NCBI GenBank assembly: GCA_964017185.1
Contig: OZ024869.1
Coordinates: forward strand, 52,602,761 to 52,666,760
Length of the DNA: 64,000 bases
Direction: 5' to 3'
DNA from: Rugalucina vietnamica
Taxonomy: Eukaryota; Mollusca; Bivalvia; Lucinida; Lucinidae
Of the stretch, positions 25,301 through 28,300 are shown piece by piece; position 1 is the stretch's first letter; each line of letters begins with the position of its first letter. A program made the translations under genes and the position numbers. Below the pieces are notes generated by a model. It made no database searches. It had not been told where the DNA came from and saw only the letters and a list, made by a program, of their open reading frames with translations.

Positions 25301-28300
25301 CTAACGTGTACCCACAATCTATGTTTTGAGCAAAAATAAGAAAAATATAAAAAAAATTCTAATGAAAATTTTCAATTTTTACAATTTAAGAAAAAGCTGT
25401 ATATTACATGGGCGTGTTTTCGTAATGAACTGCTCTAATTTGTTCTACTGTGCATTCCACAGAATGAAACAAGTACATGTACATTTTATGTGTTCTTTCT
25501 GTTTTCCTCCATGAGTTTTATCTAATTTACATTAGAATACATACTCAAATTTTTCCTCCATATTCCTCACAGATTTCTCCATTTCTGCTATTTTCTTTTG
25601 TAACTGTTTGTTGTCTGTTTGTTCTTTCTGAAAATTGTATAAAAATCTGACATAAGTATCATAAATGGATAGACCTGAGCCAGACAGGAATTTCTGACCC
25701 TGACCAAGACTTTACCATATTTTGAAAAATTAAAAAGATATTTTCCCTGTCAATATAACATTTGCAAGGCTAGAAAGCAATGCTATTTAACACAAATAAA
25801 TTGATGAGATTACTATAATTTTTATTTAGGGGTGTACTACATCAGTTATATGATGAGAATTTTTTGTTTTATGGCGATGTGTGTGTTAGATTTCCCAACC
25901 TGTATGATCTTTCCTCTAGACATGGCAAGGTCCAACAATTCATCTTTCTCTTTAGTCAACTGCTGTATTCGGGCCTCAGCTTCTGCACTGGCTGACTGGC
26001 GACTGTCTATCTGGTTCTGTAGTTTGTAATTAGCACCTGGAAAATGTTACATTTATAGCATTTATAGATACATACTGTAAGCTTTTGTATCAAGAAGGTG
26101 ATAAAAAACATTTTACAAACCTTCTCAGTTCTCACAAAATCAGCATCCTGAGTAAACTCGCTGACAGTAATTACACAGTAGATCAGCAATTTTACGTTAG
26201 ATATGAGCCGCGACGTGAGAAAACCGGTCTTCGGGGTTTCCGACCAGGTCTGACACAAACCGACCTGTACAGTCACAGGAGCAGGCTAGAAGCTTGAAAT
26301 TTCGGATATAAGAAGAAGAGGGAATGTACTATCCGTGTAGCGAAAACAAAGGCGCTGATCAGCTTCGTGGTTACCGCGAAGCTGATCTGCGCCTTTGTTT
26401 TCGCATAGGCAAAAATCCGGTTTTTTCACGATGCGGCTCATATGGTACAGTCCTTCCACTTCTTATTTGAAAATTTCAAATCTAACTCAGTTTAAATGCT
26501 GTACAGCCTAGTTTGTGTTGGAGCTGGTTGAAAACCCAAATTCAGGTTTTCTGATTATGAGAATTCAAGCACCACATTCTGAAATTTTCAACAATGTTTC
26601 TTCATTCAGTACTCTTAGCCGTAAACCATCCACAAGCAAACACAGTGTTTTGTCTTGGCTATCAAAATCACCTCACCTAAAATCAAATACTAGCAAATAA
26701 ATATTTTTCTGTAATATTTTAGTTTTCAACAGGGTTCCCATGGAAAGTATAAAATAAAATTCCATGACTTTTCCATGAAAATTCCTTGATTGGGGTTAAA
26801 TTTCCAGGACTATTTCTTCTGTTTATTCATTGTCATATAATGTTGTATAAAAGGCAAGAACAGATAATTATATTGCAAAAGTAGCTTACTTCAAGGTATT
26901 ATCTTATTTTTTGATGAAGAAAAATTAGTTTAAATGCCCTGTTGAAAAAACAGAACTTTATTTATCAATATTTATCAAGCGAGCGAGGAAAAAATGACAT
27001 CCTAAAGACATCCAAACTGGCATTTCGGAAATGATAAAATTCCATGATTTTTCCATGATACTTCATTATTTTTCAAATTCCATGATTTTTCCATGCATGG
27101 AATTTTTTTAGCCATTTTCCATGTTTTCCAGGTTTTCCAGAGCCCGTGGAAACCCTGCTTCAACTATTTTTTCATGAATGGACGTCACGATAAATTGCTG
27201 GTTAAATGCTGAAATGATGTTCTTTTCAATCAGGACCAAAAGTTTTGTGACTCTTGAAAATAAGGTTTGGTGTGTTCAATTGCCCAAGGTTTTTCTCATT
27301 TAAGGTTTGCTGGCATAATTTTGACTTCAATACATGTACATGTCTTATGCTTTTCTCTAACGTCTCTACAATTTTCATTTCAATATCATAGTTTTGTAAT
27401 TATACCACAAACTCTATTGGTAGCGTTGGAAGTGTCATTAAGTAATAAGTATACAAAGGCCAGGAAACATGTCCACCACAATCAAATACTAACACCATGG
27501 CATTCTGTTAGGTGGCCTGTTACCTTTCAATCTCTCCTCTGTTTCATTTAGTTTAGTCTGTAGACTTTTAATCTCTGGCCTGTTACCTTTCAATCTCTCC
27601 TCTGTTTCATTTAGTTTAGTCTGTAGACTTTTAATCTCTGGCCTGTTACCTTTCAATCTCTCCTCTGTTTCATTTAGTTTAGTCTGTAGACTTTTAATCT
27701 CTGGCCTGTTACCTTTCAATCTCTCCTCTGTTTCATTTAGTTTAGTCTGTAGACTTTTAATCTCTGGCCTGTTACCTTTCAATCTCTCCTCTGTTTCATT
27801 TAGTTTAGTCTGTAGACTTTTAATCTCGGATTTTAACTTGTCTTGTAGCACCTTTAGTTCTCTCTGTAATGTCTCTTCTTTACTCCGACTTTCTTGGGTA
27901 AGTTGTCTGGAAATAATTATATTACTATATGAGCCGCGATGCGAGAAAACCGGTCTTCGGGGTTTCAGACCAGGTCTGACACAAATTGGCCTGTACAGTC
28001 ACAGAAGCAGGCTAGATGCTTGAAATTTTGGCTACAAGTAGAAGAGGAATTGTACTAACCGAGTAGCGAAAACAAAGGCACTGCTTAGCTGTGCAGTTAC
28101 TGATCTGCACCTTTGTTTTCGCATATGCAAATATCCAGTTTTCTCATGATGGGGCTCATAAAATGAAAATCAACATAGTAAAATAAAATCCTCCACAATA
28201 TTTTATCAATTAATTTTTTTATTGCTTGTCAAACAAAGGAACCTGTTGTTAGAACCTTCAAAACTAACATGCTACTTTTGGGGCAAATCAAACACAAATT

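What the first reader, a model, noticed from the sequence alone, without database searches (positions are those of the whole stretch)
27524..27906. Coding minisatellite multiplies an exon end together with its splice donor in steps of three heptads
In CCDC89 exon 3 a 63-bp unit is present five times. It encodes 21 residues, exactly three coiled-coil heptads, so any copy number keeps both the reading frame and the coil register. Every unit contains the same GTAACA donor after TTGAAAG, so five donors compete and all splice in frame to exon 4. The protein could be 357, 378, 399, 420 or 441 residues. The near identity of units implies recent expansion and probable length variation between individuals.
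Basis: partly seen in the sequence, partly recalled or inferred. Interest (0 to 1): 0.75.

Follow-up and report, generated by a model that had tools for sequence, protein, structure and literature searches.

The report
Five-fold repeat copying a splice site
In a clam-like animal, the end of one exon of a coiled-coil gene and the splice signal behind it have been copied into five identical back-to-back units, so the cell could cut the message at any of five equivalent places and make proteins differing in steps of 21 amino acids, but which places it uses has not been seen here.

Summary
Window 27513-27827 (minus strand) holds five 63-bp units with no difference among them. Each unit is the last 52 nt of exon 3 plus the first 11 nt of intron 3 of a CCDC89-like gene of a bivalve-like mollusc, so the donor (AAAG|GTAACA) is present five times. 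The closest relative found and 29 of 29 named molluscs that cover the site have no insertion there, so the repeat looks lineage-specific and young. AlphaFold models the five-unit exon as one helix. Which donors are used, and whether copy number varies, is not shown. The open frame is weak evidence: only 11 intron-derived bases per unit had to avoid a stop, and a length divisible by 21 has a 1 in 21 chance. I expect the intron-proximal donor (27524) to dominate, giving 441 residues, with shorter forms as a minority. Tandem repeats at exon-intron boundaries that change splicing are described in human genes (PMC2812944), so this is a clean new variant of a known kind.

The parts
27513..27827 (-). 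tandem array, five identical 63-bp units straddling exon 3 / intron 3
27765..27827 (-). unit 1 (next to the rest of exon 3); donor GT at 27775-27774, exon would end at 27776 (357 aa)
27702..27764 (-). unit 2; exon would end at 27713 (378 aa)
27639..27701 (-). unit 3; exon would end at 27650 (399 aa)
27576..27638 (-). unit 4; exon would end at 27587 (420 aa)
27513..27575 (-). unit 5; intron-proximal donor, exon would end at 27524 (441 aa); last 11 bp are intron if it is used
27524..27906 (-). exon 3 at its longest (383 nt; 131 nt if the first donor is used)
32836..32904 (-). coding exon 1 of the CCDC89-like gene
31545..32017 (-). coding exon 2
25900..26036 (-). coding exon 4, shared acceptor of all five donors
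25545..25627 (-). coding exon 5
24721..24814 (-). coding exon 6
22288..22374 (-). coding exon 7 with stop codon

Best explanation
A recent, apparently lineage-specific tandem duplication took in the last 52 nt of exon 3 and the first 11 nt of intron 3 of the CCDC89-like gene and was re-copied to five identical units (the DNA is shown, the history inferred). The old, weak, phase-1 donor was thereby multiplied five times with its local context. Because each unit is 63 nt and its intron-derived part (GGT AAC AGG CCA) has no stop, every donor joins exon 4 in frame (shown). Inferred: U1 can bind all five equally; the purine-rich stretch GAGGAGAGATTGAAAG before each donor acts as an enhancer lying between the competing donors (not tested) and favours the intron-proximal one (27524). 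The main product is then a 441-residue protein with an 84-residue insert, about 12.6 nm longer if helical, with shorter forms of 357-420 residues as a minority ladder. No function of the added length is shown; nearly neutral lengthening of a rod-like protein is the default.
For: Identical units and exact boundaries. The exon end ...EERLK|GANYK with a single copy in orthologs: P0001 differs at 14 of 329 residues before its read-through tail; 29 of 29 named molluscs covering the site have no insertion. P0121, a read-through frame whose coding part is the same by eye as Mytilus P0017, continues ...EERLKGNQH, so the intron lies at the same K|G phase-1 site and its donor probably also starts GTAA (inferred from residues). 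Five donors pair with the U1 end equally, -6.5 kcal/mol, inside the range of the gene's other five donors (-5.1 to -7.9) and far from the consensus -14.0. No AG in the array has more than 6 pyrimidines in the 15 bases before it, so an intron inside the array is unlikely. A 473-nt exon 2 in the same gene shows that a 383-nt exon 3 is not too long. AlphaFold: helix 4-126, mean pLDDT 94.9, pTM 0.42, no alignment. PMC5585400 (passages read): an enhancer between two competing donors, and SRSF1, favour the intron-proximal donor.
Against: No protein with two units was found: the array peptide returned 1 protein with E <= 0.001 among the 7992 candidates scored, and that one carries a single unit. The only close transcript-like protein has one unit (P0001). 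PMC5585400 also reports that silencers and hnRNP A1 favour the intron-distal donor. The inserted GNRP brings Gly and Pro into a conserved coil. Bivalve splicing rules are assumed from vertebrates.
Confidence: 0.55

Rival explanations
1. The first donor (27776), the one next to the rest of exon 3, is the site used; the four later units and donors are simply intron, and the protein stays 357 residues like its orthologs.
For: 29 of 29 named molluscs covering the site have no insertion, so the coil length is conserved; an open frame through the array is expected in most cases once the unit is a multiple of three, because only 11 bases per unit are new. Silencers and hnRNP A1 can favour the intron-distal donor (PMC5585400, passages).
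Against: All five donors have the same sequence and pairing, and nothing seen in the array marks the first one as special. That equal competing donors tend to favour the intron-proximal one is recalled, not from a call; one search supports it only for enhancers between donors.
Confidence: 0.22
2. All five donors are used at comparable levels, so one allele makes a ladder of five proteins, possibly shifted between tissues.
For: Identical, weak donors with nearly the same flanks; mammalian KIT uses two in-frame donors 12 nt apart in tissue-specific ratios (PMC12818652, passages). Two shark isoform entries differ by 19 residues at the aligned position (P0074, P0091).
Against: No expression data; position alone may bias such competition; how the shark isoforms arise was not examined.
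Confidence: 0.18
3. The array is an assembly error: a true copy number of one or another value was expanded or collapsed.
For: Perfect identity is what an artefact would give, and tandem repeats are a known cause of assembly errors (title of PMC6868369, listing only).
Against: The genome is in 47 contigs for 1.09 Gb, a long-read type of assembly (inferred), and 315 bp is far shorter than such reads.
Confidence: 0.05

Closest known systems
Variable internal tandem repeats at exon-intron boundaries of human segmentally duplicated genes (De Grassi & Ciccarelli 2009, PMC2812944; passages, outline and section 9 seen)
   Same: Minisatellites (there on average 30-bp units, 4 copies) at exon-intron boundaries, kept in the exon as amino-acid repeats or spliced out; 27 intron modifications among 80.
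   Different: There the boundary repeats can form new introns, in groups of recent paralogs and with RNA support; here one locus was found, the native donor itself is inside the unit, and no RNA was seen.
[quoted passage not shown] potato RdRp, PMC4974935; start of abstract and passages)
   Same: Tandem copies of a segment carrying AG|GT; it cites a fission-yeast case with several copies of a 24-bp exonic AGGT segment.
   Different: That model needs the copies to supply both donor and acceptor; this array has no acceptor-like site and copies an existing donor.
KIT GNNK+/- alternative donors (PMC12818652, passages)
   Same: Two in-frame donors at one exon end; reading on past the first adds a G-N-[N/S]-K stretch.
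   Different: Two donors 12 nt apart; no repeat array is described in the passages seen.
CCDC89-like proteins
   Same: Sequence, length class and exon end.
   Different: Four extra units in the genome of this species.

Membership tests
CCDC89 orthologs | Sequence similarity to named CCDC89-like proteins along the protein | tested here: met
   71% identity over 99% of the 301-aa query (exons 1-5) to Ruditapes and Mercenaria entries; exons 6 and 7 were placed from the ortholog C-termini
CCDC89 orthologs | All coding exons present at one locus | tested here: met
   7 matches, one per exon, at this locus (114 of 175 candidates scored); lengths 357-441
Coding minisatellite | Tandem units of 10-100 bp, in frame, in an exon | tested here: inconclusive
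   Units and frame met; whether units 2-5 are exon depends on donor use
Variable tandem repeat at an exon-intron boundary | Repeat overlaps the boundary | tested here: met
   52 nt exon + 11 nt intron per unit
Variable tandem repeat at an exon-intron boundary | Copy number varies between loci or individuals | not testable with these tools
   One assembly, one locus found; one copy in the relative P0001
[quoted passage not shown]
   Crude test: no AG in the array has more than 6 of 15 pyrimidines before it
Alternative 5' splice site event | Transcripts using more than one donor | not testable with these tools
   No transcript of this species was found in the protein searches

The most novel reading that the evidence does not exclude
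One allele makes a ladder of rods whose length steps are fixed by the array at three heptads, and expansion or contraction of the minisatellite changes both the longest rod and the mixture, so DNA repeat number tunes a coiled-coil length through splice-site number.
Probability: 0.15. Interest if true: 0.7.

Novelty: new variant of a known kind. Interest (0 to 1): 0.42.

Why it matters
Five identical donors at equal spacing, all leading in frame to one acceptor, would be a natural experiment on how position alone decides between splice sites. It also shows how a repeat can, in principle, lengthen a coiled coil in register by recruiting intron.

Tried and rejected
New introns inside the array: no AG in it has more than 6 of 15 pyrimidines before it (the first scan gave 9 of 15 for a site outside the array at 27414). 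Older degenerate copies of the unit beside the array: best local scores 18 and 18 on the two sides, no better than 200 shuffles of the 26100-27512 side (mean 19.4, maximum 28). A retrocopy that would show the spliced form: none seen, the protein search hit only the seven exons (114 of 175 candidates scored). Array peptide in the protein database: 1 hit, single unit.

Insertions in orthologs at this site: one search found 155 proteins and listed the best 120; with P0121 that makes 121. Of these 92 cover the junction (29 dropped for not covering it); 72 have no insertion and 20 have alignment insertions of 1-22 residues. Of the 20, 18 have names, all vertebrates or crinoids by the names, and 2 (P0108, P0121) have none. 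A search for the unit end as a pattern found it twice in 0 of 121. Of 31 named molluscs, 29 cover the site, 0 with an insertion; P0048 and P0094 do not cover it.

Pfam: nothing above curated cut-offs for the 301-aa query, although one search shows precomputed PF28422 or PF28489 on its homologs. PDB: no match at E <= 0.1. Species name: not obtained, because the COX1 family search did not complete. A fold search with the AlphaFold model was not made, since one helix matches much. Paper searches aimed at a repeat that carries a splice donor in every unit showed no such case in the titles and abstract starts listed (15 of 117 papers listed, 12 of 19, none found); the library lacks most subscription journals.

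Full report
What is there. Window 27513-27827 holds five units of 63 bp without a single difference. Zero differences in 252 adjacent-copy comparisons put the per-site divergence below 1.2% at 95%, so the array is young or homogenised. The array was found once in the 1.09-Gb genome (40 of 474 candidates scored, the other 40 matches lie in a repetitive element at the end of the query). The surrounding minus-strand gene has seven coding exons between 32904 and 22288, its six introns GT-AG, and is the only CCDC89-like locus found (114 of 175 candidates scored).

Gene identity. The nearest named proteins are CCDC89-like entries of Ruditapes and Mercenaria, 71% identical over 99% of a 301-residue query.

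How the array arose. The unit is 52 nt of exon and 11 nt of intron. Its ends are unambiguous: upstream flank ...AAATCC, downstream flank CCTAAC..., with no shared bases at the joins (read). The relative P0001 has one copy...KSEIRSLQTKLNETEERLKGANYK; it differs at 18 of 333 aligned residues, of which the last four are its own read-through tail, so 14 of 329. One search listed 120 of 155 proteins; with P0121 that makes 121, of which 92 cover the site. 72 have no insertion and 20 have alignment insertions of 1-22 residues; 0 of 121 shows the unit end twice. 29 of 31 named molluscs cover the site and 0 of the 29 has an insertion. So the expansion is specific to this lineage as far as the data go.

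Splicing. Each unit carries AAG|GTAACA. The five donors pair with the U1 end at -6.5 kcal/mol each; the gene's other five donors lie between -5.1 and -7.9 and a consensus donor at -14.0. The site is weak but ordinary for this gene. A read-through frame, P0121, whose coding part matches Mytilus P0017 by eye, shows the same K|G junction followed by N, which fits GTAA at its donor too. All five choices keep the frame into exon 4. Two shark isoform entries differ by 19 residues at the aligned position, a hint that the exon end tolerates in-frame extension; they may be automatic predictions.

How strong the coding evidence is. Only the 11 intron-derived bases of each unit had to be free of stops, so an open array is expected in most cases once the unit is a multiple of three. 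A random duplication is a multiple of three in 1 of 3 cases and of 21 in 1 of 21. These figures are arithmetic, not a test. The genome is rich in minisatellites: 59 TRF rows of period >=15 bp and >=2.5 copies in 200 kb from contigs C1-C3, though 0 with period 20-200 bp, >=3 copies and >=99% matches; the window has 2 of those, this one included. In a genome of this size some overlaps of such arrays with donors are expected without selection (inference).

Structure. With I of EIKSLQ at position a, the core residues of a unit are I, L, L at a and L, T, N at d (register), and the next unit returns to the same register. A single-sequence AlphaFold model of the 127 residues of exon 3 is one helix, residues 4-126, mean pLDDT 94.9, pTM 0.42. 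This fits an in-register extension, but it was made without an alignment, such models tend to favour long helices (recalled), and each join holds Gly and Pro from intron.

Likely mechanism. An enhancer between two competing donors favours the intron-proximal one, a silencer or hnRNP A1 the distal one (PMC5585400, passages). The array has a purine-rich stretch before every donor, which resembles known enhancers (recalled, not tested), so I expect the donor at 27524 to dominate and the 441-residue form to be the main product, with a minor ladder below it. That step is inferred. No RNA was available.

Known kind. Minisatellites at exon-intron boundaries that alter splicing were catalogued in human duplicated genes, 27 intron modifications among 80 (PMC2812944, passages and section 9). 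Intron gain by tandem duplication needs an acceptor too (PMC4974935, passages), which this array does not offer on a crude test; the same paper cites a fission-yeast gene with several copies of a 24-bp AGGT segment. What is unusual is that the native donor is itself multiplied in identical, in-frame, heptad-matched copies. I did not see that described in the listings.

Noticed in passing
window 31291-31545, 32021-32272, 27926-28170, 32593-32792, 22015-22254: A family of about 245-bp palindrome-bearing, MITE-like elements has 19 stretches in the window (the ends of some stretches include padding of my queries). Five lie within about 50 bp of coding exons 1, 2, 3 or 7 of this gene, and exon 2 has one close to each end. 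Read-through frames of two relatives (P0039, P0042) leave exon 2 at the same residues, so that intron is probably older than the insertions.
   Followed up: partly
window 24721-24690 (minus strand), exon 6 / intron 6: The close relative's protein P0001 ends SKVCIL, which is what reading through the intron 6 donor gives here (sequence): a hint of intron 6 retention or an early transcript end shared by both species.
   Followed up: no
window 62249-62576: A second near-perfect array, 3.0 copies of 109 bp at 99% matches, containing a hairpin-like unit.
   Followed up: no
window 28375-28485 and 29977-30084: Two short arrays of a 23-bp unit (ACAATTCACCGACA...) in opposite orientation about 1.5 kb apart in intron 2, like the terminal inverted repeats of a mobile element.
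   Followed up: no
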